Made by a program: the position numbers and the translations under genes. From the IMG/VR virus record IMGVR_UViG_3300010403_000004, positions 1 through 64,000 of that record: a DNA stretch of 64,000 nt; one strand, 5' to 3'. Source of the DNA: a virus. A model generated the notes under the pieces. The model was not told where the DNA came from. It saw only the letters and a list, made by a program, of their open reading frames with translations, and did not search any database. Shown here piece by piece: positions 16,948 through 37,091 of the stretch; within the stretch, counting starts at the first letter, position 1, and each line of letters starts with the position of its first letter.

Positions 16948-16958
16948 AATCAGTTGTG

Positions 16959-16988
16959 ATTATAGTGTGGTGGGGTGGGGATGCGCAA
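16959..16988 (-). promoter_or_regulatory. Minus-strand promoter for tail-side late operon
   Basis: Minus strand: TTGCGC (16988-16983), an 18-base spacer, then TATAAT (16964-16959). The predicted start of transcription is only about 5 bases before the ATG of the gene at 16947. The promoter overlaps the start of the divergent plus-strand gene at 16988. Confidence 0.5.
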
Positions 16989-17698
16989 TGTGTAACAATG
17001 ACCTTGTGAAATGGTTGTTCGTCGCTGCGCAGGTGATCGCGCTCGTGCGCCTGTTGTGGGTCCGCTTCCCTTACCCGTGCTTCCTCGCCGCTCTAACGCT
17101 CTGGACGGCCCAGGCGCTCAACGTCACGCTCGTAGCCCCGCTGGCCAGCAACCCCAGCGAATGGACCCGCACGTGGTGGCGATACCCTGAGATCGCGCTC
17201 ATCATCGCCACCACCGCGGCTGTCATGGAAGCACTCGGGCGGTCACGGAAGCACGTGGAAGACTACCTGAACAGGCTCCTGCTACTGATATCGGCCGGCG
17301 CGCTCGCATTCGTCATCGTCCTGACTGGGATCTGCTTTGTCGCGCCGTTCCACGGCGATGACCAGGACCGGTTCAATCAACTTAGAGCGTGGTCATGGGC
17401 ACTCATGGCGCTCTGGATGGTCGCATCGGACCTGCTGCTCACGCTGAGAGGCGTGGATCGTCCCACGGACGCCTGCTGGCACGCACGTCTGCTGATGGCG
17501 GTGATGATCGGGAAGATGTTGGTAGCGCCGTTGGTAGCCGCGCCAGACGAGGTGTGGCGTGACGCGCGGGCCGCGTACCGTCCGCTTGTGATTCTCGCTT
17601 GCTACTGTTGGGCTACTCGCTTCCCGCGCCGGCCGACCGTACCTGATCGGGAGACAGGTCATGGCGAATTGCCACCAGCTCAGACCGCACACCGGTGA
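16988..17698 (+). CDS. Integral membrane protein on the opposite strand
   Basis: 236 residues from the ATG at 16988 (MCNNDLVKWLF); the frame extends upstream but that part is the antisense of the neighbouring gene. About five or six hydrophobic segments alternate with charged loops, typical of a polytopic membrane protein. It is a single plus-strand gene inside a minus-strand block, so it was probably acquired separately and may be expressed independently. Possible superinfection exclusion or lysis-timing factor, but no family recognised. Confidence 0.5.
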   Translation: MCNNDLVKWLFVAAQVIALVRLLWVRFPYPCFLAALTLWTAQALNVTLVAPLASNPSEWTRTWWRYPEIALIIATTAAVMEALGRSRKHVEDYLNRLLLLISAGALAFVIVLTGICFVAPFHGDDQDRFNQLRAWSWALMALWMVASDLLLTLRGVDRPTDACWHARLLMAVMIGKMLVAPLVAAPDEVWRDARAAYRPLVILACYCWATRFPRRPTVPDRETGHGELPPAQTAHR

Positions 17699-17831
17699 GC
17701 GCCGCGCGGATCTCGCGTTGTAGCTCGCGCTGATGCACGCTTGGACGCCGGAATCCGAGGAATAGCATTCCGCATGCACCGCCCAAGAACCCCACGAGAA
17801 TAAGACCAACCGCCGCAAGTACGCTAGCCAT
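17613..17831 (-). CDS. Small single-span membrane protein
   Basis: 72 residues: one N-terminal hydrophobic segment (LAAVGLILVGFLGGACGMLFLGF) then a charged helix. This layout fits small phage lysis or spanin-type inner-membrane proteins. Its 3' end overlaps the convergent plus-strand gene by about 86 bases. It is grouped with other small membrane proteins. Confidence 0.5.
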   Translation of the reverse strand: MASVLAAVGLILVGFLGGACGMLFLGFRRPSVHQRELQREIRAALTGVRSELVAIRHDLSPDQVRSAGAGSE

Positions 17832-17874
17832 TTAAGGCAATTGTACTATGCGTACGGAACCGCACGGGTTAAAT

Positions 17875-18018
17875 TTATTCGGGCGGCGGCGGTGACGTGG
17901 GAGGTGGGTCCGTGTCGGGCGGGAGTTGCGGCGGTTTCGGCTCGTCTGCTGGTTCGTCAGACGCGCTATACGTACGGCGTCGGCGAGTAGCGGCGACTGC
18001 GGTTTTATTACGACTCAT
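17875..18018 (-). CDS. Small Pro-rich basic/acidic protein
   Basis: 47 residues from an ATG with an AAGGA ribosome site; begins with a basic segment (ATRRRRTY) and ends in PPP repeats (DTDPPPTSPPPPE). The longer upstream frame would overlap the neighbouring gene. No function recognised; it may be a small accessory in the membrane-protein cluster. Confidence 0.4.
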   Translation of the reverse strand: MSRNKTAVAATRRRRTYSASDEPADEPKPPQLPPDTDPPPTSPPPPE

Positions 18019-18023
18019 GTAGT

Positions 18024-18248
18024 TTATCCTTTCAGAATGAGTTTGACGATGACTTCGTAGAGCAATACAGCAACGCCGAGTGCGCCGACCGCCCTCCACT
18101 TAAACTCTTCGAGCGAGTCTAGGCGCGTGTGGATGCGGGTCAACTCACCTGGCTGGCCGTTGCCCAGCAGGTAATGGTCCAGACGGTCTAACACCGTCTC
18201 GATTTTGGTCAAGCGGCTCTCGATTGCGATGAGTCGGGTTTCGAGCAT
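18024..18248 (-). CDS. XhlA-like small coiled-coil/membrane protein
   Basis: 74 residues: an N-terminal amphipathic coiled coil (LETRLIAIESRLTKIETVLDR) and a C-terminal membrane span (VGALGVAVLLYEVIVKLIL). This order matches the haemolysin XhlA-type proteins that work with holins. It lies 47 bases from the next small membrane gene. The XhlA assignment is by layout, not by a checked match. Confidence 0.5.
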   Translation of the reverse strand: MLETRLIAIESRLTKIETVLDRLDHYLLGNGQPGELTRIHTRLDSLEEFKWRAVGALGVAVLLYEVIVKLILKG

Positions 18249-18295
18249 CAGTACTCCCTATCTATGATATTACCCTTGGCGCGGGGCCGCTGGGG

Positions 18296-18622
18296 TCACG
18301 ATTTCGCTTCGATGATCTTCTGCTCCACCGTGGCAGTCGTACCGGGGTCCGTGGCCGGCTGGGGCGGTCCGGTAGTCGCAGACATGCTGAGTGTAGATGT
18401 GCCGCCTCCTGGAGAGGGAGGAATCGGCGGCAATCCAGGCGTGCTCTCGCCGGTCAGGTGGCGCAGCAGCGCACCGACCGCCATCCCGAACGGGACCGAC
18501 ACCGACATAAAGAATGCCCCGTCCGATCGGAACCAGAACTCGGCACCGAACATGGCCAGGAGCAGGATGATGGACAGGAATAGCAGGATCACCGCTGTCC
18601 CGGCGTTGCTGGCTACTTTCAT
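18296..18622 (-). CDS. Two-span membrane protein, possible holin
   Basis: 108 residues with two hydrophobic spans (about 8-28 and 37-52) and a Pro/Gly/Thr-rich cytoplasmic-type tail. Small size, two spans and neighbours with coiled-coil membrane proteins suit a holin. It overlaps the upstream stop by 4 bases. No endolysin is visible nearby. Confidence 0.45.
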   Translation of the reverse strand: MKVASNAGTAVILLFLSIILLLAMFGAEFWFRSDGAFFMSVSVPFGMAVGALLRHLTGESTPGLPPIPPSPGGGTSTLSMSATTGPPQPATDPGTTATVEQKIIEAKS

Positions 18623-18888
18623 GTGACTCCTTTGACGGGCCGTTGTCGCGACTCAATCACAGCCACGCGCTGGATCAGATTATTGATCTTGTCGTCGTGC
18701 CTGCCGATCATGTCGCAGGCGATGTCGTACGCCGCGAGCTTGGACGCCGCATCGTGCCGCCACTTCCGCAGCGCCTCAACCTCGATCTTCATTTCGCTGA
18801 TCATGTAATTCATCCGACTGAGCAGAGCCACGAACCCGATCAACTGGGTAAGCAGGACAGCACCGAGCGATACCCATTGAAGGATCAT
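18619..18888 (-). CDS. Single-span coiled-coil membrane protein
   Basis: 89 residues from the ATG at 18888: an N-terminal span (LGAVLLTQLIGFVALL) then a long coiled coil (MISEMKIEVEALRKW onward). I used this start because a purine-rich site (GGTGGAG) precedes it and the frame upstream is antisense of the fibre gene. The layout resembles an inner-membrane spanin or lysis accessory. Overlaps its downstream neighbour by 4 bases. Confidence 0.5.
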   Translation of the reverse strand: MILQWVSLGAVLLTQLIGFVALLSRMNYMISEMKIEVEALRKWRHDAASKLAAYDIACDMIGRHDDKINNLIQRVAVIESRQRPVKGVT

Positions 18889-18899
18889 CTCCACCTTAT

Positions 18900-21068
18900 T
18901 TATCGGACCGGTGCGGACATTGGGAAAAGTCGCTTGATCTCCGCGCCAACTGGGCCGCCGGCGTGACCCGCTGTGAATGTAGTCGGATTGTTCACGCGGA
19001 ACCCGAGCCTCACCCATTCGTACGCCGCCATGGGCGTGAACTTGGGATTGAACCCGGAGTCGTTGTTCACCTTGCCGAACTCTGATACGCACCCGGCCAG
19101 CGTCGTCACTGAAGCATCCATCAGCGTGCACCACGTCAGTAGCTTGCGCGTCGTGTCGGTGAATTGTGGGTTACCGGATTGATCGTGGGTGCCAGGAGGA
19201 GACGGGCTCGTGTAGTAGTTTGTGGCACTCACAATAGTGATCGTCCCTGAGCACGTCGCCGTTCCGTTTGTCAGCACTGCGGTCGTGGGGCTGGCAGAAT
19301 ATCCGCTGCCGCCCGCTGTGATGGATAGCATGGTCGACGCGGCGATGGTGTCCGTGCCGGTCAGTGCGATCGTTCCAGCGGCACTGCTGCCGCCGCCGTT
19401 GAACGTCCCGACGTTGCAGGTTTGATTCGCGGACCCCGTGACGGTCGCGCCGCTCACGTACTTCGCCTGACGCACGACGCCCGACGTGGCGTTCTGGTAG
19501 CCCCCGTTCCCGCCACCACCCACGTTGGAGAAGTTGTACGTCCAGTTGTAGTCGAGGCCGTTGTAGGACCCGTCCTGCACGAACGTGGACCCGGACAGGA
19601 TGGAGTAGGCCAACGCGCCGGTTGCGCATGTGGTCAGACAGTAGGCGATGTTGTCGGTCATCGCCGCGAACCCGCCCGCCGTGGTACCAAGGCCGGCTTC
19701 CCATCCACCACCACCGCTGCCGCCCGTCGCGTCGGACCCAGTGTGCCGAGCGAAGTAGGTGTTGTTCTGAACAGTCGATACACTGGACGCGCCGGGTCCA
19801 ATCTTCAAATGGACGGCGTTCATATACTGCGTCGCCTCGGTCGGTGGCGGCAGCACCACTCCGTTTTTCTTAAGGTAGGTCCCGCCCAAGTTGGAACTGT
19901 CGCCACCCCCGGAAGAGTTTCCCGATCCGGCCACCGATTCCGTGATGAACCCGTCCAGTATTTGCGCTCCCTGGTACGCCTTGGGGCCGTCGAGAAAATA
20001 GGGCTCCTGCCCACCGGTGGTGCAATTTCTGACGCCATAGATTCTCGTGACCGACCCCGATTGCAGGCCCGGGAAGTCCATTGACGTTTGGCAGGCGGTG
20101 GAGTAGCTGAACATGTTCGACCACTGCTGCGCGTTGAATTGACTGGGCGCGATGGTGACAAAGTAGTTCCCCGCCCCCGCCACTTGGGAGTTGAGTATCC
20201 AATCGTGGACGTAGAGGTTGACATTGCCCGCCGACAACGTTTCCAGTGTAATTGGGCCTTCGCTGTAGATATAGTTGATGGTCCACAGCGCCGTTGTCTT
20301 GGAGAACGTCAGAATCATCGTGCGCTTGTCCGTGCGCGTCGGACTGAAGAACGAGGTGTGAGTGATCGAGTAGGTTTGGCTGTTCGCGTCCCCGCGGAGC
20401 CACAGCACGCCGGAGCCGGTGAACGAACAGTAGTTGCATGACCACGCGTACGTCGATGGGCCGTTGGTGTCGTGCGAGACGCACCGGTTTGCGCGCGACA
20501 CGGATTCAGTTGCCGCCGTTCCGCACCCAGTAAAGTTGGCGTACTGAAACTGCATCTGTCCGCCGCCGATAAACCCGCCGTCATCGAATCCGCCGAAGTC
20601 CCCGCTCATGGCGAAGTTGGTCTGATTGAAGCGATGGCCGTTGGTGCTAGTCGATCGCAGCAAAGCGACCGTGTTGTCTTTCGCTCCGATATGCCACACG
20701 TAGGCTGGCGTTCCGCTCGCGAGGCTGGAGTCATGGACGAGCGCGGAGTCGGGCCCGTACGTCCACGTCGCCTCGCACTGCGAGACATCACCTTGGATCT
20801 GGAGCGTGCCGTTGACATTGAGGACGCCCGTTCCGCTGGTGGTTGAGCAGGATATCGCCACGGTACCCGCCGCGCCGGACGTGCCGACTACCGCCGTGGT
20901 GCTGGCTGGGATCGTGATCGTGAAACTGTCGGCCAACACTACAGTGTCGCCCGCCACGGGCGCGTGGCCGCACGACCAGGTCGCCCCCGTCCAGGTGCCG
21001 GTGGATTGCGAGGTGCAGGTAGCGGCGAAGGCGGGGATGGAGAGGGCGAGTAGTAGTAGGGTTCTCAT
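18900..21068 (-). CDS. Large secreted beta-helix-like protein with signal peptide
   Basis: 722 residues. The N-terminus MRTLLLLALSIPAFA then ATC is a classic Sec signal peptide with an AxA cleavage site. A segment TWTGATWSCGHAPVAGDTV follows, a pattern common at the start of secreted beta-helix proteins (G8-like). The body is rich in Gly/Ser/Thr/Asn with paired cysteines, suggesting a disulfide-stabilised parallel beta-helix. Its start overlaps the upstream stop by 4 bases, so it is part of a coupled block of signal-peptide proteins. It may be a fibre, adhesin or exported polysaccharide-binding protein. Confidence 0.55.
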   Translation of the reverse strand: MRTLLLLALSIPAFAATCTSQSTGTWTGATWSCGHAPVAGDTVVLADSFTITIPASTTAVVGTSGAAGTVAISCSTTSGTGVLNVNGTLQIQGDVSQCEATWTYGPDSALVHDSSLASGTPAYVWHIGAKDNTVALLRSTSTNGHRFNQTNFAMSGDFGGFDDGGFIGGGQMQFQYANFTGCGTAATESVSRANRCVSHDTNGPSTYAWSCNYCSFTGSGVLWLRGDANSQTYSITHTSFFSPTRTDKRTMILTFSKTTALWTINYIYSEGPITLETLSAGNVNLYVHDWILNSQVAGAGNYFVTIAPSQFNAQQWSNMFSYSTACQTSMDFPGLQSGSVTRIYGVRNCTTGGQEPYFLDGPKAYQGAQILDGFITESVAGSGNSSGGGDSSNLGGTYLKKNGVVLPPPTEATQYMNAVHLKIGPGASSVSTVQNNTYFARHTGSDATGGSGGGGWEAGLGTTAGGFAAMTDNIAYCLTTCATGALAYSILSGSTFVQDGSYNGLDYNWTYNFSNVGGGGNGGYQNATSGVVRQAKYVSGATVTGSANQTCNVGTFNGGGSSAAGTIALTGTDTIAASTMLSITAGGSGYSASPTTAVLTNGTATCSGTITIVSATNYYTSPSPPGTHDQSGNPQFTDTTRKLLTWCTLMDASVTTLAGCVSEFGKVNNDSGFNPKFTPMAAYEWVRLGFRVNNPTTFTAGHAGGPVGAEIKRLFPMSAPVR

Positions 21069-21775
21069 TGTTGGGGCGTCCTGTGTACGATTTTGGGCAG
21101 GGCTGGCTTGAAGGTGGCTATAGAGCAGTTGACCTGGCTACCCGTGCTCCAACTCCACGTGGGATTCACGGACGCCGCAGATGTCTGAATATAATACGCC
21201 GCCGACTGGCCGAAGTTATTCCCCGCGCTATAGGCGGCGGTATTGGTTATTGTCATCGTCGGAGTAGCCACAGCGGTGCCTGTTATTGACGCCGCAAACG
21301 CGAGCCCAGAGACAACAAGTTCGTTATCCTGCGATGGCAATCCGCTGGCACCAGGCTGAACGCTTGTCCCGTTATTCGTTCCCCCCGTGCTCTGCTGATC
21401 GAACGATGACGCCGTAGCCACACCCGAGAAGATCATGACGCAAATCGCGGGAAACGTAGCCACGCCATTCGGAATTGTGAAGGTCTGTGTCGAACTCACC
21501 GTCGCATTCTCAGCGTAGTAAATCGCGTGAAGGGTACTTGAATTGGTGACCGTGTTCAACTTGGTGTAGGTATTTGCCGAGGTTGAATCAGTCGGCGTGG
21601 CCAAGGTTGTGAAGCGGACCTCAAAAATTACTATGAGGTGGTTCGTTCCTGCCGTGCCGTCTATCGCGCTGGTGGTTACGGTCGAAGTGCTACCGGAAGC
21701 GCACGTGCTTGCCTCCAAGTGGATAGCGGCGTGCGCGGTCGCGGCAAGGAGAAAAATGGTTAGGGTGCGTAGCAT
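21065..21775 (-). CDS. Secreted beta-sandwich-like protein with signal peptide
   Basis: 236 residues: Sec signal peptide [16 protein letters not shown] then AIH; body Thr/Ser/Ala-rich and beta-like, ending before a short basic tail. Contains few cysteines (one pair plausible). Coupled to both neighbours (1-base and 4-base overlaps). No enzymatic motif; the make-up fits a surface lectin or fibre domain. Confidence 0.5.
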   Translation of the reverse strand: MLRTLTIFLLAATAHAAIHLEASTCASGSTSTVTTSAIDGTAGTNHLIVIFEVRFTTLATPTDSTSANTYTKLNTVTNSSTLHAIYYAENATVSSTQTFTIPNGVATFPAICVMIFSGVATASSFDQQSTGGTNNGTSVQPGASGLPSQDNELVVSGLAFAASITGTAVATPTMTITNTAAYSAGNNFGQSAAYYIQTSAASVNPTWSWSTGSQVNCSIATFKPALPKIVHRTPQQ

Positions 21776-22812
21776 CAGTTCACCGTGTAGACAACCATGA
21801 CCTTGTAGATGACCGGGGTTCCGGCAAGCGTGCTGGTGCTGGTTTCGATATAATCTCCGGCCCCTAACGCCGTGGTCGATACCGTGATACTGCCGGATGA
21901 CGTAGTCCCATCAATGCACGTTTGGGACGTCGCCGTTCTAGCGCAGGCGGGGAACCCGCCGGTGAGAGTCGCCAGCGCTCCGCTCAGCAGATTGGTGTTG
22001 GTCCATGCCGTGCAATTCCCACCGGTGATTGTCGAGCAATGCCGCTTCTGCACCTGGACGCTACTGGTGCCGGCGTCGGCATCAACTGCGATCTCCACTA
22101 CCGTGGAAGCCGCTGGAACCTTGCACTGCTTCATCTGTGGAGCGAGGTCCAGAGCCACCAGCGCAGCTCCATTGTTGGCTCCGATCACGATATCGCAGAC
22201 GCGGGTCGTGTTCCCGACTGGACCCGTGGGTCCTGTTGGCCCGACCGCGCCGCTACCATTCCCGGAAGAGATCAGAACAACGCCATTGAAGGCCCCGCTG
22301 AATGTCACAGTGGCTACGTTGGTGGATGTCGGAACGATATCAAGTACACTCACAGTGCTCGACAATCCTCCGAGGTCCGCTCCCGCTCCTGCGACGATCC
22401 ACGGAGCAACACTTGTCCCGGTTGCGAAGTTATGAGTGATAACCATACAGGGATTACTGTTGGTCCCACACGTCGGACTGGCCGTGCAACTTCCCCCGCC
22501 GCTAGTCGAACATGTCGAACTACCCGTGTTGACCGTAGCCGTGATGGCCGACGCCAACGTGGGATTCGCGCCCGTCGGACCGGTCGGACCAGTAGGCCCT
22601 GTCGGACCCGTTGCGCCTGCCACGCCCGCGCTTCCTGTCGGTCCAGTGGGACCAGTGGGACCGGCGGGGCCGGTGGGGCCGGTGGGTCCGGTGGGTCCGG
22701 TGGGTCCAGTCGCACCGGTTATCGCAGGCGGGACGCTGGTACTCTGCGCCGACAGGGATGCCGCGATGATGCCGCAGAGAAATATCGGGAGGATTGCGGC
22801 CAGCCGCCTCAT
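21775..22812 (-). CDS. Collagen-like protein with signal peptide
   Basis: 345 residues from the ATG at 22812, which overlaps the upstream stop (ATGA). The N-terminus [22 protein letters not shown] is a signal peptide. Residues about 33-85 are Gly-X-Y repeats, mainly GPT, interrupted by GSAGVAGAT. The C-terminal domain (about 200-345) is beta-like, with cysteines in CDIVIG, QCKV, RHCST, NCTAW and CARTA. Collagen-like stalks with globular heads are typical of surface fibres and spore or phage adhesins, so a trimeric stalked adhesin is likely. Confidence 0.6.
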
Positions 22813-23627
22813 CGGATCACCCCCCTCACAGAGCAGTAGATCGACGATGCCGTTCCTGCAAGCCAGGTCGCGCCGCCATCGGCACGCGTGCCTCCAGGCC
22901 ACGCAATCACGGTGATATTGTTGACTGTGGTGTTCGGAATTACGGTAGGCACAATCGGCAGAGCCGCGGACTGCGCGTCCGACACGGTGAAGGAATGGTT
23001 TCCGCCGTTATTGTCTGCGCACGAGATGAGGTCGATATCGCAAGTCCTGTTCGCTTGCAAGTCGATCCCGCCGCTGATCACCCAGTTGCCGGCCGAGACG
23101 TTCCACGTGTGGATCTTCAGCGCTCCGAACGGAGGCCCGGAAGTGCTGACGACGGTCGTACACCCGGAACACGTAATCGTCGCCGTTGGCAGGGGATTGT
23201 TGACGTAGATCGTCGGCGTCCCCGGTGCACCAGCGGAACCGCCCACCACGCCGCCATAGATCGTCACCACGCCAACGTCAGCGGCAGTGCCACCCGACAG
23301 GGTAGCCGTCTTCGTAGACGTAATCAGCATGTCCGTGGTGGGGAAGCGGATGTACTCCGGGACCGTCGCGCTCGCCGAGCCGCCCATTGTCAGGACGGTA
23401 GCCGACGTACGCGCCACGTCCAACGTTGACCGCGAGCAGATTCGCTGCGACGTAGTGGAGAGCAGTTCCCGGAACTGGAAATGATCCCCGCCGACAGGAG
23501 AGGTGGAGAGGTTCGGGTAGGTTTGGGATGGAATGGGATCGGGAACCAGCGCGTTCGATGGCTGGCCCCATGCGGCAGATGCCGCCACGATGAGAATCAG
23601 GAGATATTTCGGCATCATTTTTTCCAT
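22809..23627 (-). CDS. Secreted beta-rich protein with signal peptide
   Basis: 272 residues. The N-terminus, from [18 protein letters not shown] then QPS, looks like a signal peptide. ATGs at 23627, 23618 and 23615 are possible starts; the last overlaps the stop of the HNH gene in TGATG form. Body is Thr/Val/Gly-rich with Cys pairs ([23 protein letters not shown]). Member of the four-gene signal-peptide block. Function unknown, probably surface or fibre related. Confidence 0.5.
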
Positions 23628-24265
23628 GTCTGTTCGGTAACGAGCATGTGGATCGCTCCCACGCTCATGTTAAACTCTTTGGCCAACTCTTTCAACGTGG
23701 CCCCGGTGGCTCGTTTGGCTATAATCGCCACCCGCTGATCTTGGGTGAGTTGCCGTTTCTGCGGCTCCCTTGGACCGACCACTCGTCGCCAATGCTTGCC
23801 TTTGACGAGGGGGATAATGGAGCCTAGCGTAACCCCGTACTTGGCACTCAGCGCCAGTAGCGTCATTCCCGCGGCGCGATCCACCAACACCTGCCCAGCG
23901 AGTTCTTCGGTCAGGACTGCGGTGTGAATGCCGACGCCTCGCGGACGCCGATCTCGCGCAATCGCGTCGGCGCTGTTTTCCTTGTGCGTCCCTGGAATGC
24001 AATGGGCCGGATTGACGCACCACTTGTGGTCGCATGTGTGTCTCCCTAGGAACTTTCCGAGATCAACCCGGTTAGCAATAAAATACGAGATCCGGTGCGC
24101 CTTGAAACTCTCCGGCCCGATCCAGAATGTTCCGTATCCGTCCCCAGATGCCCCGGCGAACCAAGGCCAGCATTCATCGGACCCACCCTTAATGACCTTG
24201 GACCAAAAGCGGTCCAAGTCCTTTTGCGAAAGTCGCGGAATAGGTTTAGGCTTGTAGTCAGACAT
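23615..24265 (-). CDS. HNH homing endonuclease with C-terminal helix-turn-helix motifs
   Basis: 216 residues. Residues 31-35 ECWPW and 76-88 (HTCDHKWCVNPAH) give the HNH_3-type phage homing nuclease signature with metal-binding Cys and His. Residues about 110-216 contain two predicted helix-turn-helix segments (LLALSAKYGVTLGSI, LKELAKEFNMSVGAI) for target DNA binding. It lies just downstream of the capsid gene and has the same ECWPW signature as the gene at 30092. Free-standing homing endonucleases often sit beside essential genes. Confidence 0.75.
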   Translation of the reverse strand: MSDYKPKPIPRLSQKDLDRFWSKVIKGGSDECWPWFAGASGDGYGTFWIGPESFKAHRISYFIANRVDLGKFLGRHTCDHKWCVNPAHCIPGTHKENSADAIARDRRPRGVGIHTAVLTEELAGQVLVDRAAGMTLLALSAKYGVTLGSIIPLVKGKHWRRVVGPREPQKRQLTQDQRVAIIAKRATGATLKELAKEFNMSVGAIHMLVTEQTWKK

Positions 24266-24295
24266 CTTGTTCTCCTTTCAAGAACAGGAAGTTCA

Positions 24296-24340
24296 GGGGC
24301 CGGGTTCGATTTGCTGTCGAATTCCAGCCCCGTTTTTATT
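24296..24340 (+). terminator. Strong hairpin followed by T-run
   Basis: Stem GGGGC (24296-24300)/GCCCC (24327-24331), inner stem TTCGA (24305-24309)/TCGAA (24317-24321), then GTTTTTATT. On the plus strand this is a good intrinsic terminator. On the minus strand, the direction of the flanking genes, there is no T-run, so there it may instead insulate the HNH gene or shield its ribosome site. Confidence 0.5.
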
Positions 24341-24369
24341 GTAACCTAAACCATGCGTTGATGTCAAGC

Positions 24370-25743
24370 CTACTGACCGGCAGGTACCTGTAAGCTGTAG
24401 TAAACAACCGCGCAACCAGGGTCAACGCTATAAAGCTGTCTCGAGTTGACTAAATAGAACTGGAAGCCCGCTTGGGGGTTGCCGGTGGTGGCCGAGCGTC
24501 CGATAAAGATGCGCTGGCCTTCGGGAGTTTGGACGAAGTCGATGTCGGCGAGCTGGCACCAGCCGAAGTTGGACGGATTTAGCCAATCGACGCGGGCCTT
24601 GCTGGCGTAGCGGCTGACGTAGTGGGTCACATCGCCGGCCATAAAGGTGTCGCCGTAGTCGGTGCCCTTGGGGGCGATATCGATCATCTTGTCGGAGGGG
24701 CCGCGGAACCAGTTGCTGATCGTGATGCCCTGGAGGTACCAGGAAACGCGTTGGGCGGGGTGACAGACGCCGATGACGCCACTGTAGGCTTCCTCGTCGC
24801 GCCGCTGGATGAGTTGCGACTTGCCGCTGTACAGCAGGGACGGAGTGAAGAAGCCGGATTGCCCGTTAACGGACGGAGTGGCCAATTCGTACGCCGTGGT
24901 GTAGGAGAGTCCGCCCAGCGAGCCGCTGGTGGACGTGGTGTTGAACGTATAGATGCCGTTACGCCACGAGCCGGCCGCCGCGGTGTACGCCGTACGAGCT
25001 GCGCCGAGGCCCATGTTCGGAAACATGATCTGATCGGTGTTCACCGGAGTGTAGGTGCTGGTCCCGGACAGGGTTAGCGTATTCGACGCGAAGTTGATGC
25101 TCTTAACGCGGGCGCCGACGAATTGCAGCAGGAGGTTCGTGTCGTAGATGTCCACGAGGGCATTCGCGCCGCGGATGCGGTTGTAGCCGAACGTGGATTC
25201 GAGGTTGTACGTGACGTTCGTGCTGGAGATCGTCGGGGAGCCGGTTCCGTTGGCTTGCGCCAGAGTCCCAGTGGAATCCTGGAAGAGTCCGATCTCGTTG
25301 TAGAGCGCCATTTCGGAGATCGCCTTGCCGAGGGTGAACTGGAGTGCGTTCGTGATAGCCTGTTTCGCGTCCTTCGTGCCGTAGATGGCGCGGAGGGGCA
25401 AATTGAAGCCGATATCGTTTTCGAAGGTTCCGAACGCCATGAACGCACTGTTCATCATGGAGCCGGTGCCGAGATCGCCTCCGTCCAGGGAGATGGCCTG
25501 GTAGTCGCCACCGATGGAGAGCAAAACCGGAACGCGCCACGCGAGAACCGGGCCGCCGGCGGTGTATGTCGGAGATCCGCCCGATGCCGCGTCGGTGAAC
25601 GCGGAGACTTGGTGTTTTTCCGCCTGCTTGTTGAACAAAGAGGCAAATTTGGACTGCTTTTGCGCGAGGAAATAGGACAGTTTCGGGCGAACCTGTTCCA
25701 ACATTGTCGGAATGACGTTCGCCGTCTGAGCCGTGATGCTCAT
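24370..25743 (-). CDS. Major capsid protein (putative)
   Basis: 457 residues, soluble, with an alternating helix/strand make-up. The helical N-terminus (VIPTMLEQVRPKLSYFLAQ) resembles an N-arm, followed by an extended region and a C-terminal beta-rich domain. It lies directly after a Pro/Gly-rich, helix-ended scaffold-like gene and 3.7 kb downstream of the portal, the standard order portal-scaffold-capsid. A well-spaced leader (47 bases) precedes it. No cleavage site is obvious. Assigned from position and make-up rather than a motif. Confidence 0.65.
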   Translation of the reverse strand: MSITAQTANVIPTMLEQVRPKLSYFLAQKQSKFASLFNKQAEKHQVSAFTDAASGGSPTYTAGGPVLAWRVPVLLSIGGDYQAISLDGGDLGTGSMMNSAFMAFGTFENDIGFNLPLRAIYGTKDAKQAITNALQFTLGKAISEMALYNEIGLFQDSTGTLAQANGTGSPTISSTNVTYNLESTFGYNRIRGANALVDIYDTNLLLQFVGARVKSINFASNTLTLSGTSTYTPVNTDQIMFPNMGLGAARTAYTAAAGSWRNGIYTFNTTSTSGSLGGLSYTTAYELATPSVNGQSGFFTPSLLYSGKSQLIQRRDEEAYSGVIGVCHPAQRVSWYLQGITISNWFRGPSDKMIDIAPKGTDYGDTFMAGDVTHYVSRYASKARVDWLNPSNFGWCQLADIDFVQTPEGQRIFIGRSATTGNPQAGFQFYLVNSRQLYSVDPGCAVVYYSLQVPAGQ

Positions 25744-27630: not shown

Positions 27631-30018
27631 CTATTGTACTGCACCTGCCGCACCAGCAGGCATCCCCTGAGGTGGCGGCATGGCTCCTGGCTTCAACGGA
27701 GGCGGCTGGATCTCCGCTTGCACCCCGGGAGGCTCAATCCCAGCCTTTTGAAGCGCCTGCGTGATAGCCTCATTTCCAAGATCCGAGCCCTTCAGCGACA
27801 CCGCCACGCTCGCCTTTGCGGGAGGTACCACAGGCGGCACAACAGCCTTGGCCTCGTGCGCCTGACCGTACAACTGCACGTTCTCGTAGCCGTCCGGGTT
27901 CGATTCCTTGATATCGAAATTGGTGATCAGGTACGCCTTCGCCAACTTCCCTAAGAACTCGGAGTCGTCTTCCCAATCCGGCTGTATGCTGGCTTGCGGT
28001 GGCCCCGGCTGACCGGTCTGAGGATCTATCGGACCTGGTTGCGGTTTCTCCTGCAACAGCTTGCCGATGATGTCCATGCCCTTGTCGCGGTCGTCAAGGT
28101 GCGGCACGCGCATTCCAGGCATCCCGAGCAGTTCCTTGAACTCGTGAATGTTGAGCGGATCATCCAAGCCCCACGCCTTCAGGATTTCGGCTGGCTTGTC
28201 CAGCATCCACATCAGCAAGTCGCGCTGCTGGCCCCACGTCATGGGGATCGCTTCGTCGGCCTCGAAGTGGAAATTGCCGCCCTTCAGGTCTTCGATGGTG
28301 ACGGTGATGGAATCGAACTTGCCGTACTCGTTCTCCTTCTGCTTGGAGAACGCCATCACGCCGTCTTCGTTATCGGCCAGCAGCTTGCAGCCCTTCTCGT
28401 AGACGCGCTCCAACGACTTGCCGATCATCACCCAAATCACGGACAGTTGCCGGATGGCGGCGTTCGTCTTCAACTCGCTCTGACGCGCGGTCGGGTCGGA
28501 CGTGTCGCCGCCCCAGATGATGTCGAGCAACCCGGAAGTTTCGCGCGATGTTTCTTCCACCTGGCGGCGGAACGGAGGGATCTGTTCCGAGAACGTCACG
28601 GTCGTTTGCTGCGAAATCAGATCGTTCAACGTGCCACCCGGCGGCCGTACGGCGGGGATCAAATCTCCAGGATTGTCGCGTCGGCGTTGCCACGCGTCGA
28701 GATCCACGCGCGTTGGGTCCGCGAACCGGGGATCGTTGGACCGTTCAAGCGTCTCGTTGCACTGATTGAGGATATTGTTGAGCAAATCCTGAGTGACGAT
28801 CCAATCGTCGCCCAGCGGCTCGCACATGATTCGCTTCGTCGGCTCCGGCTGGCATTCCTGCCAGTGGTTTATCACCTTGCGGTTTTCCAGATCGATGACG
28901 TGGCCTTTGACCGCCGTGATACGGATGCCGTCGGGGAAATTCTCGGCGATCAACTCTCGGATCGCCTTGTCGTCGATCAGCTCGTACTGCGCGGTAGTCC
29001 AGTCCTCCAGGATCACGCTCCAGCGGTTCTCGCGCTTGGGGCGCACGATGCCGATGGGGGACGCCATCGCACTGCGGACGCTCTCGCCGTACTGGAGGGA
29101 CGCGGACTGGTCATCGAACGCGTTTTCTCCGCCCTTGACGGCTTCGCGCAAGGTGTCCCCGTACTTTTGGAGCAACTTCGCTTTCGGCTGTTCCATCTCC
29201 CGGCGAATCCAGCCGCAATCGTTCACCCCTTTACGTCCGTCGGCATCCAGCGGGACCGAAACCTCGCTCGCGTCGAGGATGTCGATCTCCAGGCCGCCCT
29301 TTGGCATCCGCTTTGGTGGAAGGTCCGCCGGCACGCTGGCTTGTAGCGGGTCCTGGTACATGCCGCCATCAGTCGGAGCCCCGCACTCTGGGCACTCAGG
29401 CCCATCGGACATCGCCCCGCACTGTGGACAAGAGATCCCGCCGCCGATCTGCGCTTGCTCCTCGGCAAGCTGCGGAACATCCTTCCATCCGTACTTGTCT
29501 CCGTCCTCCACCCATTCAATCGTCCAGAATGATGTGCCGAAGTTGAACAGAGAGAACACAAGCCACAGAACCATGACCTGAAGCTCGCACTGTTCGCGGA
29601 TGTAGAGCGCGGCGTTATTCGCGGCGCGTGCCGCCCGGATATCATTTTCGGCGGACGGATTGTTCGGTACGGCTACCGCATTCGGAATGCGCGTGCCAAG
29701 GACTGCTTCCAGTTTCCGGCAATACCCGCGGTAGATGTTCTGCGTGTAGTCGTAGACGCCGTTGCTCTGACCCGCGCCGCCCATTGAACCACCGTCAATG
29801 CCGGTCGCATCTAGAAGCCCCTGGTACAGGGCAGGCGCGAAGTAGGCAAGATCGCGGTAGTAAAGCGAATGCTTGTGGATTCGGCGGAGAATCCAAACTC
29901 TATCGGCCTCTAACTCGTCCGCCATCTCGCTCGCTATAACGCGCGCAATCGGTTTGGCGAGTTTTGCGATGAGTTCTTGTTTGGATGGGGCGGCCTTCGT
30001 CGGTCCTAAGATTTCCAT
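27631..30018 (-). CDS. Portal protein with zinc-ribbon insertion
   Basis: 795 residues from the ATG at 30018 (MEILGPTK). The length, helical core, upstream position relative to scaffold and capsid genes, and Pro/Gly/Gln-rich C-terminus fit portal proteins of short-tailed phages. Residues 197-212 contain CPQC and CPEC, a four-Cys zinc ribbon in the wing-like region. A GTG at 30060 (14 codons upstream) is an alternative start; the DNA before 30018 is the intergenic side of an inserted HNH gene, and no strong ribosome site precedes 30018. A displaced copy of the first 13 codons lies at 30641-30685. Confidence 0.65.
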   Translation of the reverse strand: MEILGPTKAAPSKQELIAKLAKPIARVIASEMADELEADRVWILRRIHKHSLYYRDLAYFAPALYQGLLDATGIDGGSMGGAGQSNGVYDYTQNIYRGYCRKLEAVLGTRIPNAVAVPNNPSAENDIRAARAANNAALYIREQCELQVMVLWLVFSLFNFGTSFWTIEWVEDGDKYGWKDVPQLAEEQAQIGGGISCPQCGAMSDGPECPECGAPTDGGMYQDPLQASVPADLPPKRMPKGGLEIDILDASEVSVPLDADGRKGVNDCGWIRREMEQPKAKLLQKYGDTLREAVKGGENAFDDQSASLQYGESVRSAMASPIGIVRPKRENRWSVILEDWTTAQYELIDDKAIRELIAENFPDGIRITAVKGHVIDLENRKVINHWQECQPEPTKRIMCEPLGDDWIVTQDLLNNILNQCNETLERSNDPRFADPTRVDLDAWQRRRDNPGDLIPAVRPPGGTLNDLISQQTTVTFSEQIPPFRRQVEETSRETSGLLDIIWGGDTSDPTARQSELKTNAAIRQLSVIWVMIGKSLERVYEKGCKLLADNEDGVMAFSKQKENEYGKFDSITVTIEDLKGGNFHFEADEAIPMTWGQQRDLLMWMLDKPAEILKAWGLDDPLNIHEFKELLGMPGMRVPHLDDRDKGMDIIGKLLQEKPQPGPIDPQTGQPGPPQASIQPDWEDDSEFLGKLAKAYLITNFDIKESNPDGYENVQLYGQAHEAKAVVPPVVPPAKASVAVSLKGSDLGNEAITQALQKAGIEPPGVQAEIQPPPLKPGAMPPPQGMPAGAAGAVQ

Positions 30019-30091
30019 GTTAATATGTAACGAGGTGGAGAGCGTTGAAGCGCACCCCACCTCTCACCAAATCGCCTATCAAGGAGGCAAG

Positions 30092-30640
30092 ATGGCTAAA
30101 GCTAAGTTTAGAACAATTCCAGAACTCTCCGCCCATCAGTCGAAATCCTTTCACGGTAATATCGACAAGAGAGGCATTGATGAATGCTGGCCATGGACTG
30201 GCCGCATTATGAAAAAACAGTCCTGCCAATACGGAACATTCTGCATCACCAAACCGTTCGGAGAAATTCCTGCGCATCGGTTGTCTTTCAAACTCCATAG
30301 CGGAATCGACCCGGCGCATCTGTGGGTGCTCCACCGATGCGATAATCCGATCTGCGTCAACCCCTCGCATCTGTTTTTGGGAACGTTCCAAGACAACGTT
30401 GACGATATGGTCAGAAAGGGACGCCACATGCACGGAGACGGGCACTACCTGCGACAGCATCCCCGTTGCGGACAGGCGCACAATCGTGCATCGCTCACAG
30501 ACGCGGAGGCGCTGGAGATAAAGTCCATTTACCCCGCTGGGGGGCACACGCAGAAGGCGCTCGGCCAGCGTTACGGTGTTTCGGAGGCTTGCATCCAGAA
30601 AATCGTAAGCGGCAAAAATTATAGCCACCTGAAGGTGTGA
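30092..30640 (+). CDS. HNH homing endonuclease inserted at the portal start
   Basis: 182 residues from an ATG with a GGAGGC ribosome site. ECWPW at residues 31-35 and HRCDNPICVNPSH at 81-93 mark the HNH_3-type nuclease, followed by a C-terminal helix-turn-helix-like segment (TQKALGQRYGVSEACI). It is transcribed opposite to the portal gene and separates a remnant of the portal start (30641-30685) from the intact gene. It is a free-standing homing gene that targeted the portal locus, with its own divergent start region. Confidence 0.75.
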   Translation: MAKAKFRTIPELSAHQSKSFHGNIDKRGIDECWPWTGRIMKKQSCQYGTFCITKPFGEIPAHRLSFKLHSGIDPAHLWVLHRCDNPICVNPSHLFLGTFQDNVDDMVRKGRHMHGDGHYLRQHPRCGQAHNRASLTDAEALEIKSIYPAGGHTQKALGQRYGVSEACIQKIVSGKNYSHLKV

Positions 30641-30685
30641 CCTTGGCTTCGATGGCGCGGGTTTGGTGGGGCCGAGGATTTCCAT
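30641..30685 (-). pseudogene. Displaced remnant of the portal gene 5' end
   Basis: The minus strand from 30685 reads MEILGPTKPAPSK, matching the start of the intact portal (MEILGPTKAAPSK). Twelve of 13 residues are identical, but only 4 of 13 codons are the same; 8 differ silently. Its ATG lies 3 bases after the stop of the upstream gene (30689), where the original start would be expected. After codon 13 the frame runs antisense through the HNH gene. Confidence 0.75.
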
Positions 30686-30688
30686 GCG

Positions 30689-31189
30689 CTAAACCGGTTC
30701 CCCCTGAACCTCGTTCATCACGGCCCCGGCGACTCCTTCCCCCATATGCTTAGCGACTACAGCGAACCTGGGATGGAGTTTCGCGAGCACCGCCATGTCC
30801 ACATCCCTGTGCATTTGGCGCACTCGCGAGATGGCGGACCTAGCCGTTTCCTCGCTGGCCTTGAACTGCCGCATGTCTGGCGGCTTCTCCTCCACCCGCT
30901 CCGTCATCAGCTTCACGTTCAACGCGTCGAGGCTTTTCAGCCGATCCTCGGTAATCCGCTGAAGGTCGCCCCGTACCGCCGCAAGTTCCGCGATCAACCG
31001 TTCCACCTCGGAGCGCCGCTCAACAGCCAGCACCTCGGCGGAGATGCGCGCGGCGCGTTCGCGAGCGAGGTCGGTATTCAGCCGCTCCATGTCGCGCTCG
31101 TATTCCGCCTCCATCCGCACGGCGGAATCTAACGCCTGCGTCAACGCGGAGACGCGCTCGGACTGCCGTAGCCGTCGCCAGAGATTCAC
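30689..31189 (-). CDS. Coiled-coil protein in the portal operon
   Basis: 166 residues, nearly all helix with heptad-like Leu/Ala/Val and alternating charges (about 10-110). The C-terminus is helical and Met-rich. It lies just before the original portal start and overlaps the next upstream gene by 4 bases. It may be a capsid accessory or assembly factor. No family recognised. Confidence 0.55.
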   Translation of the reverse strand: MNLWRRLRQSERVSALTQALDSAVRMEAEYERDMERLNTDLARERAARISAEVLAVERRSEVERLIAELAAVRGDLQRITEDRLKSLDALNVKLMTERVEEKPPDMRQFKASEETARSAISRVRQMHRDVDMAVLAKLHPRFAVVAKHMGEGVAGAVMNEVQGEPV

Positions 31190-33851: not shown

Positions 33852-36800
33852 TTACATCCGCGCGAACCGGTGCCCCATCAGCCGGTCACGCCGCACCTGC
33901 GCTCGTCCCACCGGCGGCCACGCCATCTCGCGAACCTCCGGGACCTCGGGCACCGTCCGCGGCACACAGACCGCCAGCAGCAACGCCTCCACGAACGGGG
34001 ACACGTCAAGGTCCTTGCGAAATGCTCCCAACTCCGCGATCAACCCGGCGCACGACGGGTGAATCTTGATCTTCGGCCACTCGCCCGTCACCTGCCCCTC
34101 CACCATCCCAAGGTACCGGTGATACTCGCGCAAGTCCGCCTCGGCCAACGCCATGGCCTTATCCCGCTCGTACGGCAACTGCCGGAAGTCCGGAGGTTGG
34201 AATGCCAGCAGCCCGCGCAGCCGATCCAACGCCGCGTCCGACTCCTCCTCCACCATCTCGCTTCGGATACGCCCTCCTTGCAGCCGAACCCGCGCCGCGT
34301 TACGCGCATCCCATCCGCCATCCTCCGGCTCATACGCCAGCAACGAAGCCTCCATCATCTCCGCCCACGACCCCACCGGCTCGACCGGCGCGAACGCGTG
34401 CTTCGGCAGGAATATCTCGTACCCCGCTCTCCCTGCCCGGATCTCCCGCACTCCCAACTCCGGCAATACCCGCCGCGCAATCTCTCTCCCGGCCACCATC
34501 GCGTCCACCCCAACCAAACTCAACTCCCCCGTGACCCTCAGCGCACCCGTCCGCAACTCCGCCATCCACAACGCTGCCCGCCCTGGAATAACCGCGACGA
34601 ACCGCCGTGCCCCAGCGTCAACCCTCTCCCCAGACACATGCACCGCCGACGTTGGCTCCCCCATCCGTGGCGCAACGCGGAACTCCGGCACTCCAGCCCT
34701 TGCGCTCGCATCGTACAGCCGCTTCAACGCCTGCGACATCGCGTCCGTGTCATCGTCATGTTTCGCTCCCTGCCCCGCCGCGAACTCCGCCAGCAACTCC
34801 CACACCCACGGGAATAGGTCCGGGTTGGGCAAGTAAACATTCCCCGCCTCCACGTACCCCGAGATGGCCGCCACTCGGCTCCACTTTCCCCCGGCAGGGT
34901 TCACCGCGATCAACCCCGGTATCTCGTTCTTCAACGCATCGATCACCGCAGGGCCGTTGGCTTTATCCTCGACCAACTTCTCCGAGCACGGCACCCGCTC
35001 GCTCATCCTTCGGACGGCCGCCAGCGTCTCCAGAAACGTTCGATGCTCCGAGTCCCGCTCCAGCAGGTACGAGTTACTTCCAATTCTCCCCCACGCCTGC
35101 CCCGCCACGGTATCGTTCTCATCCGTCCCCTTAAACGCCATGTCCCACGACTGCACCACTTGCTCAAACACCGCCGGCAACTCCACCGGCGCAATCTCCG
35201 CAAACGTTCCGTCCCCAATCGCCAGCCGCACCGGTCTCGGCTTTCCCTCCGCGTCCACCACTCCCATGCCGGGAGGATTGTAGAACCGGAACCACTCCCG
35301 CTTGAGCCCATTCTTGCCACCAGCAGCCGGTTTCTGGTTAAATTGGCCTGAATTTTGGGACGCGAAGCCCCATGCCACATAGTTTCCGGTCGTGGTGGTT
35401 AGCCCGTAGACCGGCATATACCCAAGCGGACGCATTGAAATCACGTGATGGTTTTTTTTGTCCTTGGATCGATGCACGGGCTCAGAAAGAGATTTCCCAG
35501 CCATCCACAGGCTATCGATGATCCTCTGCCGTTTGACCATGTGGCAGTGAGCTAGTATCTTAATTTTTGACGACCGTCCGCCGTGAATATTATAAATTCC
35601 CGACTCGTGCCATTTAGGATTGTCTTGTCTCTTTTTGACGCGGCCATCTTTGTCGCGTGCGCCACGCCAAACTGAATACTCGAAGCCAAGCCGCGGGATC
35701 ACCCTCTCCAGTTCGGCTTGAACGTCAGGATTTTTGGCTGATTGGCTTATTGATACCAGGTTCTTTTGGCAGCAGCTCCCCTCTCCATCGATCATGCCCC
35801 CGAGCCAGTCGTATAGTCTTTGGTCCTCTGCGTTGCAATCTCCGCTGGGAGTGTATACGGAATGAAGTTTGCTTCTCACCTTTAGCGGCAAATAGGATGC
35901 TCGGTTGCGTCCCTTTGCTCTGTACCATTTATGGTCTTTAGTGCAATGGACCGTGCGCCCACTGGAAAGAGAATATTCGTACACCATCTGTTGCGAAACG
36001 CTAATATCGGTGACGCGGCATTTAGTTAACGACGCCTTGAGTTTGTGCCCGTGGACTTGCCCCACCTGCAACCTGGCATCGTTCTCCGGCTTGACATACC
36101 CAACCAACTCATCCCCGACATTCACGTCCTTGATCTGTTTTTCTGACCAGTCAGCCATCAGTATCGGCGTGTATCCAGGCGTGCAGTAATGCTGTCGCTG
36201 TTCTCTTTTCAAAAGATCCGTCTCTTCCGGCCCCAATCGCTCCGGAAACAGCAACTCCCCATGCCTCGTCCTCGGGTCCGGATACGCCAGCGGCCCAATC
36301 GTCCGCGCCCCATCCCACTCGTTCGGAATCACCACCTGCTCCCAGCCGCCCATTTCCAACAGGTACTCCGTTAGGTCGCCGCCGTACGATGCCCGCTGCT
36401 GAATGACTAGCCTACAGTCCGTCTTCGGATCGATATTCCGCGAAGACATCGAACCCGAGTACCACTCCCGAACCGATTGCGGATACGTCTCCGGCTCCTT
36501 GTTCATCCTTTCCAGATCATTCGGATCGTCGATGATGACCACCGACCCACCCTCACCAAGGACGCCGCCCTCGACCGACGCGATGATCCGGAACCCGCCC
36601 TTGTCGTTCTCAAACCGGCCCTTCTCGTTCTGGTCACCAGAGAGTTGGAACTTGGAGCCCCAGCGCGACTGGTACCACTGCGAAGCAATCAGGTTTCGAC
36701 ACCGGCGCGAGTCCCTCTTCGCCAGCGTCAAGCCGAACGACGCCGCCAAAAACTTCTCCTGCGGCGCCTTCAGCCATCGCCACGCCGGGAACGCCACTGA

Positions 36801-37091
36801 AACCAGGGAACTTTTCAGCATTCTGGGGGGCACATTAATTATGAGACGGCGAATCTCCCGCCTCGACAACGCCTGCAAATACTCGCAAAGCATACTGATG
36901 TGCCAATTTTTCTGGAATGGTACCCCAGGCTGCAACGCCGGCCAAGACTGCTCCAGAAAGAACTCCAAACTCTCCTCGCAGTACTCCGCATCCGCCTGCA
37001 ACTCTATCGCCCGGATCGCCTCCTCCGCCACCCGCAACGCCCTGTCAGACGTGTACTGGCTCGGCGGCCTCTTCCCTGTGGCTCTTGGCAT
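33852..37091 (-). CDS. Terminase large subunit with intein and C-terminal extension
   Basis: 1079 residues, including an intein at 303-580. The ATPase part has a Walker-A-like loop (NVPPRMLKSS, about 86-95) and a Walker B (VVIIDDPND, about 184-192). After the intein, SGQFNQKPA joins the usual Y-x-QFxQxP segment of terminases. The nuclease part has WDMAFKGTDENDT (about 653), EDKANG and a late HDDDTDAM cluster. About 280 further residues follow the nuclease domain, a long extension of unknown role. After splicing the protein would be 801 residues. Confidence 0.85.
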   Translation of the reverse strand: MPRATGKRPPSQYTSDRALRVAEEAIRAIELQADAEYCEESLEFFLEQSWPALQPGVPFQKNWHISMLCEYLQALSRREIRRLIINVPPRMLKSSLVSVAFPAWRWLKAPQEKFLAASFGLTLAKRDSRRCRNLIASQWYQSRWGSKFQLSGDQNEKGRFENDKGGFRIIASVEGGVLGEGGSVVIIDDPNDLERMNKEPETYPQSVREWYSGSMSSRNIDPKTDCRLVIQQRASYGGDLTEYLLEMGGWEQVVIPNEWDGARTIGPLAYPDPRTRHGELLFPERLGPEETDLLKREQRQHYCTPGYTPILMADWSEKQIKDVNVGDELVGYVKPENDARLQVGQVHGHKLKASLTKCRVTDISVSQQMVYEYSLSSGRTVHCTKDHKWYRAKGRNRASYLPLKVRSKLHSVYTPSGDCNAEDQRLYDWLGGMIDGEGSCCQKNLVSISQSAKNPDVQAELERVIPRLGFEYSVWRGARDKDGRVKKRQDNPKWHESGIYNIHGGRSSKIKILAHCHMVKRQRIIDSLWMAGKSLSEPVHRSKDKKNHHVISMRPLGYMPVYGLTTTTGNYVAWGFASQNSGQFNQKPAAGGKNGLKREWFRFYNPPGMGVVDAEGKPRPVRLAIGDGTFAEIAPVELPAVFEQVVQSWDMAFKGTDENDTVAGQAWGRIGSNSYLLERDSEHRTFLETLAAVRRMSERVPCSEKLVEDKANGPAVIDALKNEIPGLIAVNPAGGKWSRVAAISGYVEAGNVYLPNPDLFPWVWELLAEFAAGQGAKHDDDTDAMSQALKRLYDASARAGVPEFRVAPRMGEPTSAVHVSGERVDAGARRFVAVIPGRAALWMAELRTGALRVTGELSLVGVDAMVAGREIARRVLPELGVREIRAGRAGYEIFLPKHAFAPVEPVGSWAEMMEASLLAYEPEDGGWDARNAARVRLQGGRIRSEMVEEESDAALDRLRGLLAFQPPDFRQLPYERDKAMALAEADLREYHRYLGMVEGQVTGEWPKIKIHPSCAGLIAELGAFRKDLDVSPFVEALLLAVCVPRTVPEVPEVREMAWPPVGRAQVRRDRLMGHRFARM
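35352..36185 (-). other. Intein in the large terminase (LAGLIDADG-type)
   Basis: Residues 303-580 of the terminase. It starts with Cys (CTPGYTPILMADW), has a block B-like HCTKDHKWY near 383-390, and ends VYGLTTTTGNYVAWGFASQN before the +1 Ser of SGQFNQKP. The penultimate residue is Gln rather than the usual His. DWLGGMIDGEG near 428-438 is a LAGLIDADG motif; a second motif is not clear, so the homing part may be degenerate. The insertion point in the Y-x-Q segment is a known terminase intein site. Confidence 0.8.

What the first reader, a model, noticed from the sequence alone, without database searches (positions are those of the whole stretch)
29980..30690. HNH gene inserted at portal start; displaced original start and recoded replacement
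The portal gene begins MEILGPTKAAPSK at 30018. A second copy of that start, MEILGPTKPAPSK, lies at 30685 directly behind the upstream gene (3 bases after its stop), where the original start should be. The HNH gene (plus strand) lies between them. The copies share 12 of 13 residues, but 8 of 13 codons differ silently and only 4 are the same. The simplest reading is that a homing cassette entered the start and carried in a diverged allele of the gene end, leaving the old start as a remnant. Silent change at nearly every codon suggests the new start came from another lineage or was selected to escape recutting.
Basis: partly seen in the sequence, partly recalled or inferred. Interest (0 to 1): 0.9.

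Follow-up and report, generated by a model that had tools for sequence, protein, structure and literature searches.

The report
Phage gene start replaced beside endonuclease
In this uncultured phage a small DNA-cutting-enzyme gene has wedged into the start of a probable portal gene, bringing a diverged replacement start from another lineage and leaving the original first 13 codons stranded; the same trick is known for gene ends in fungal mitochondria, but I found no report of it at a gene start in a phage.

Summary
The probable portal gene starts at 30018(-) with MEILGPTKAAPSK. A second start, MEILGPTKPAPSK, lies at 30685(-), three bases behind the upstream gene. It matches 12/13; the next best match in six frames is 6/13. 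Of the 13 codons 4 are identical, 8 differ silently and 1 changes the residue.

Every relative recovered (16 loci, about 11 distinct lineages, 45-90% portal identity) has one start at or directly behind the upstream gene's stop and no HNH there. The 30685 copy continues the native DNA (34/39 and 35/39 nt to L001 and L002). The working start is the odd one (27/39, 26/39), and the window departs from its sister L001 only over about the first 40-46 codons. So a cassette plus a foreign start tract entered, and the old start is the remnant.

Silent recoding needs no special selection: L001 and L003 differ silently in 9 of the same 13 codons.

The HNH gene has an intact HNH_3 domain and its own leader, and points away from the portal. 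L006 versus L005 shows a second HNH facing a gene whose first codons are diverged. I favour endonuclease-driven homing with replacement of the gene start; passive mosaic recombination is the main rival. Donor and cut site were not found.

The parts
30647..30685 (-). Displaced original start of the portal gene: 13 codons, MEILGPTKPAPSK, 3 bases behind the upstream gene's stop
   Evidence: 12/13 aa match; 34/39 and 35/39 nt to L001 and L002; continuous 84% DNA match to L001 down to 30644
30641..30646 (.). Left junction: native portal DNA stops within about 6 bases of the HNH stop codon
30092..30640 (+). HNH endonuclease gene, 182 aa, HNH_3 domain plus C-terminal helix-turn-helix-like part
   Evidence: PF13392 E=1.4e-6, above cut-off; phrog_59 E=9e-25; phrog_517 HTH 3.5e-5
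30074..30088 (+). Small hairpin GCCTATCAAGGAGGC holding the Shine-Dalgarno sequence (30081-30087) of the HNH gene
   Evidence: 18/20 leader bases shared with the HNH leader of L006
30032..30063 (+). Hairpin in the HNH leader
   Evidence: whole leader -23.3 kcal/mol, z -2.96
30018..30026 (+). Extended -10-like sequence TGTTAATAT for the HNH gene, touching the complement of the portal ATG (inferred promoter)
   Evidence: the consensus scanner found no sigma-70 site here
29881..30018 (-). Replacement start tract of the portal gene, about codons 1-46, of different ancestry from the rest; right boundary approximate (codon 38-50)
27631..30018 (-). Probable portal gene, 795 aa
30689..31189 (-). Upstream gene (native neighbour), 81% aa identical to L001
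30020..30685 (-). Open frame of 221 codons from the remnant ATG, antisense through the whole HNH gene, stopping (TAA) one base before the new portal ATG; possible translational coupling, unproven

Best explanation
A free-standing HNH homing endonuclease cassette, divergently oriented to the portal gene, was copied from a related but more distant phage into the first codons of the portal gene. On the portal side the exchange ran through homology: the donor's gene start and roughly 40-46 codons came along, then the sequence returns to the native allele. On the other side the donor DNA was joined to the recipient after codon 13, within a few bases of the HNH stop codon, which stranded the original start. 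The gene works from the imported start, so the insertion is tolerated. Shown: insertion, native remnant, foreign start tract. Inferred: that the HNH protein made the break, the joining steps, and the promoter.
For: All relatives have one start and no HNH at this place. Remnant and upstream gene continue native DNA. The first 40 codons have 13 window-only versus 5 L001-only differences, the rest 66 versus 95 (Fisher p=0.013); against sister-supporting sites p=0.0016; sisterhood score rank 3 of 756 overlapping windows, minimum at codons 1-3. HNH_3 domain above cut-off. The HNH leader carries a hairpin and an SD hairpin, similar to controls described for T4 homing endonucleases (PMC2988022). Second case: in L006 an HNH gene faces a gene whose first 39 nt match L005 at 27/39 while the rest matches at 420/438 (p=5e-7).
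Against: No donor phage with this HNH beside a portal start was found. No endonuclease activity or cut site is known. The foreign tract is short and its statistics modest and partly post hoc. Among about 80 other HNH loci none shows a duplicated flank, so the displaced start is rare. L006 has no remnant, and its facing gene could have diverged for other reasons.
Confidence: 0.62

Rival explanations
1. Passive mosaicism: an illegitimate recombination between two phage lineages joined a lineage carrying an HNH gene upstream of its portal to this one. The HNH enzyme took no part; the remnant is just the overlap.
For: Phage genomes recombine this way; no cut site is known; the 39-nt overlap needs only one illegitimate joint plus one homologous crossover.
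Against: The joint lies within about 6 bases of the HNH stop, keeping exactly the HNH cassette; a second HNH in this phage group also faces a diverged gene start; nuclease genes are reported at exchange boundaries in phages (PMC10448857).
Confidence: 0.27
2. The opposite polarity: the upstream gene with the 30685 start is the incomer and the start at 30018 is the original.
For: Two alleles of different ancestry are present; by itself that does not say which one is new.
Against: The upstream gene, the remnant and the portal body after codon ~46 all share the nearest relative L001 at similar divergence, whereas only codons 1-46 lose it; the 30685 copy sits in the ancestral position.
Confidence: 0.05
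3. The start was duplicated in place (e.g. a target duplication at insertion) and both copies then drifted.
For: Both copies share K8, seen in no aligned relative.
Against: 8 silent to 1 missense change is not the pattern of a free-drifting copy, and the remnant stays close to L001 and L002.
Confidence: 0.04
4. The remnant was kept because it works as the start of a 221-codon antisense frame that couples translation from the upstream gene to the new portal start.
For: The frame is open through the HNH gene and ends TAAC-ATG; the new start has no visible Shine-Dalgarno sequence.
Against: By codon usage an open antisense frame has probability 0.12, and 7 of 44 related HNH genes show one. Post hoc. 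Compatible with the main explanation.
Confidence: 0.15

Closest known systems
Mitochondrial mobile-ORF gene hybrids (Allomyces macrogynus atp6; Glomus atp6, atp9, cox2, nad3; PMC3630166)
   Same: An endonuclease gene inserted at the end of an essential gene brings a foreign gene end; the displaced native end remains and matches close relatives (about 91% nt for atp6), while the new end is about 64% at DNA but nearly identical at protein level.
   Different: There the 3' end (C-terminus) is replaced, in fungal mitochondria, by LAGLIDADG or GIY-YIG enzymes, often in phase with the gene. Here it is the 5' end, in a phage, by an HNH gene in opposite orientation.
Free-standing homing endonucleases of T4-like phages (seg and mob genes; PMC2988022)
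   Same: Stand-alone HNH or GIY-YIG genes between essential genes, co-conversion of flanks, RBS hairpins.
   Different: Known ones insert between genes with cut sites hundreds of bases away; I found no described case in which the neighbour's start is replaced and the old one left as a remnant.
Nuclease genes at boundaries of genetic exchange between phages (PMC10448857)
   Same: Nuclease genes mark the edge between native and foreign DNA.
   Different: Concerns large islands and whole genes, not a swapped gene start.
Prophages integrating in host genes and restoring the gene end (e.g. icd in E. coli; from own knowledge)
   Same: The element carries a silently diverged replacement of the gene end it displaces.
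   Different: Site-specific integrase and host chromosome; 3' end. No integrase here.

Membership tests
HNH homing endonuclease (HNH_3 type) | HNH_3 nuclease domain | tested here: met
   PF13392 28.2 bits, cut-off 24.8
HNH homing endonuclease (HNH_3 type) | separate C-terminal DNA-binding part | tested here: met
   phrog_517 HTH DNA binding protein, residues 122-174, E=3.5e-5
Free-standing phage homing endonuclease | stand-alone ORF, present/absent at one site among relatives | tested here: met
   absent from all relatives at this site
Free-standing phage homing endonuclease | co-converted flank | tested here: inconclusive
   foreign tract of ~40-46 codons, p=0.013 and 0.0016; no donor found
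Free-standing phage homing endonuclease | cuts the HNH-less allele and drives its own inheritance | not testable with these tools
   needs biochemistry and phage crosses
Gene-end-replacing mobile ORF (mORF hybrid) | displaced native end close to relatives, imported end diverged mostly silently | tested here: met
   remnant 34-35/39 nt versus new start 26-27/39 nt to L001 and L002
Gene-end-replacing mobile ORF (mORF hybrid) | replacement of the 3' end (C-terminus) of a mitochondrial gene | tested here: not met
   5' end of a phage gene
Phage portal protein | profile match or portal fold | tested here: inconclusive
   phrog_156 E=0.0098, no Pfam or PDB match, model pLDDT 36; position between terminase and head genes fits

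The most novel reading that the evidence does not exclude
In this phage group HNH cassettes are 'start-carrying' elements: the HNH promoter reaches into the first codons of the essential gene it faces, so homing always carries that gene's start. Afterwards the cassette holds the only working start. Silent divergence between the two copies would hinder both recutting and loss of the cassette by recombination between them.
Probability: 0.2. Interest if true: 0.72.

Novelty: new variant of a known kind. Interest (0 to 1): 0.55.

Why it matters
It shows in a phage, and at a gene start, what was known for gene ends in fungal mitochondria: an endonuclease gene can settle inside an essential gene without an intron or intein by bringing a replacement for the part it displaces. 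The stranded start records which side was joined by homology and which was not. That gives a directly testable model of how free-standing homing endonucleases colonise new sites and why genes next to them have chimeric ends.

Tried and rejected
Portal relatives in annotated phages (none) and in bacterial/archaeal genomes (none). Donor search with the HNH protein in viral contigs and phages (nothing above about 60% identity, no portal beside it) and with the portal N-terminus (only known relatives). Duplicate flanks around about 80 other HNH genes, including the window's second one (none convincing). Rfam: nothing above gathering scores. Sigma-70 scan: no hit; the terminator-like hit at 30623-30642(-) is at chance level. 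Selection for recoding: rejected as unnecessary. Assembly chimera: considered unlikely because both flanks share the same nearest relative and two joints would be needed. Structure prediction failed. tblastx synteny output was too noisy to use and was replaced. The L007 portal was left out of alignments because of an internal TGA.

Full report
Observation. On the minus strand the probable portal gene begins at 30018 (MEILGPTKAAPSK) and a second, very similar start lies at 30685 (MEILGPTKPAPSK), three bases behind the stop of the upstream gene. The copies match at 12 of 13 residues; in a six-frame scan of the window the next best match is 6 of 13. Of 13 codons, 4 are the same, 8 differ silently and 1 changes the residue. 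A 182-aa HNH gene (30092-30640, plus strand) lies between them; it matches PF13392 above its cut-off and several HNH families of PHROGs, with an HTH-like C-terminal part.

Which state is ancestral. Searches of viral contigs gave 16 loci with relatives of the gene, 45-90% identical over the gene and about 11 distinct lineages. In each of them the gene has one start, at or directly behind the stop of the upstream gene, with no HNH between. L001, the nearest (90% aa), keeps 84% DNA identity with the window continuously from 31515 through the remnant to 30644 (alignment). So the arrangement in the window is derived, and the copy at 30685 is in the native place.

Which copy is foreign. Over the 13 codons the remnant matches L001 at 34/39 and L002 at 35/39 nt, the working start at 27/39 and 26/39. 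Along the portal gene the window is the sister of L001 (0.818 nt identity against 0.72-0.76 for other pairs among the window and L001-L003), except at the start: over the first 40 codons identity to L001 falls to 0.69, and a sisterhood score ranks 3rd lowest of 756 overlapping windows. Site patterns agree: 13 window-only against 5 L001-only differences in codons 1-40, 66 against 95 afterwards (Fisher p=0.013); against sites uniting the window with L001, p=0.0016. The foreign tract ends near codon 38-50. The statistics are modest because the tract is short, and overlapping windows are not independent.

Recoding. L001 and L003, neither with an HNH there, have identical 13-residue starts but differ silently at 9 of 13 codons. 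Eight silent differences are therefore ordinary divergence between lineages of this phage group. Selection is not excluded, only unnecessary. Both copies share K8, seen in no aligned relative, so the donor may be closer in protein than in codons.

The cassette. Upstream of the HNH gene lie an extended -10-like TGTTAATAT (30018-30026), a stable hairpin (30032-30063) and a small hairpin holding the Shine-Dalgarno sequence (30074-30088). The leader of the HNH gene in L006 has the same layout and shares 18 of 20 bases around the Shine-Dalgarno site, although the proteins are only 34% identical. The HNH genes of L005 and L010 and the window's second HNH gene also have a -10-like box just ahead of a hairpin. 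RBS hairpins are described for T4 homing endonucleases (PMC2988022). In both the window and L006 the -35 region of such a promoter would fall inside the first codons of the facing gene; the promoters are inferred, and the consensus scanner found none.

A second case. L005 and L006 are close relatives. In L006 an HNH gene stands head to head with the coiled-coil gene upstream of the portal; in L005 another gene is there. The first 39 nt of the coiled-coil gene match at 27/39, then an indel, then 420/438 (p=5e-7). There is no stranded start, but again the gene start facing an HNH gene is of other ancestry. About 80 further HNH loci show no duplicated flank, so a preserved remnant is rare.

Mechanism. 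I favour homing with replacement of the gene start: a break near portal codon 13, one end repaired by homology to a donor that carried the HNH gene ahead of its own portal, the other end joined without homology just past the HNH stop. Illegitimate mosaic recombination without enzyme action gives the same product and cannot be excluded; the joint right at the HNH stop and the L006 case tilt the balance. The frame starting at the remnant ATG is open through the whole HNH gene (221 codons) and stops one base before the new ATG, which could couple translation; chance of the open frame alone is about 0.12.

Comparison. The closest described systems are mitochondrial mobile-ORF hybrids (PMC3630166): imported, mostly silently diverged gene end, displaced native end close to relatives. 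The window differs in host, nuclease type, orientation and in replacing the 5' end. The literature held did not show a phage case, but that library lacks most subscription papers. Verdict: real, derived insertion; new variant of a known kind.

Noticed in passing
window 35362-36186 (-), inside terminase ORF 33852-37091: Terminase carries an insert of about 275 residues (304-577) absent from L003 and looking like an intein with a LAGLIDADG-like motif (LYDWLGGMIDGEGSC).
   Followed up: partly
window 23615-24265 (-): Second HNH gene directly behind the probable capsid gene, 31% identical to the first, with a TTGACA-18-TACAAT promoter-like site just after the capsid stop and a leader hairpin.
   Followed up: partly
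window about 16950-24370: About 7.4 kb between the probable capsid gene and the next shared gene corresponds to only 1.3 kb in the syntenic relative L003.
   Followed up: no
L006:3876-4496: HNH gene facing a gene whose first codons are diverged from L005 before near identity; leader 18/20 bases like that of the window's HNH gene.
   Followed up: yes
L005:7324-8015 and L006:7613-8878: HNH gene overlapping the portal 3' end in L005; in L006 its N-terminal half is gone and two other genes sit there.
   Followed up: partly
L007:4992-7409: Portal homologue with one in-frame TGA at codon 345 in an otherwise open frame.
   Followed up: no
L012, L014, L025, L030, L038, L058 (upstream of HNH genes): Shine-Dalgarno sequence of many viral HNH genes lies within a predicted hairpin, as known from T4.
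   Followed up: partly
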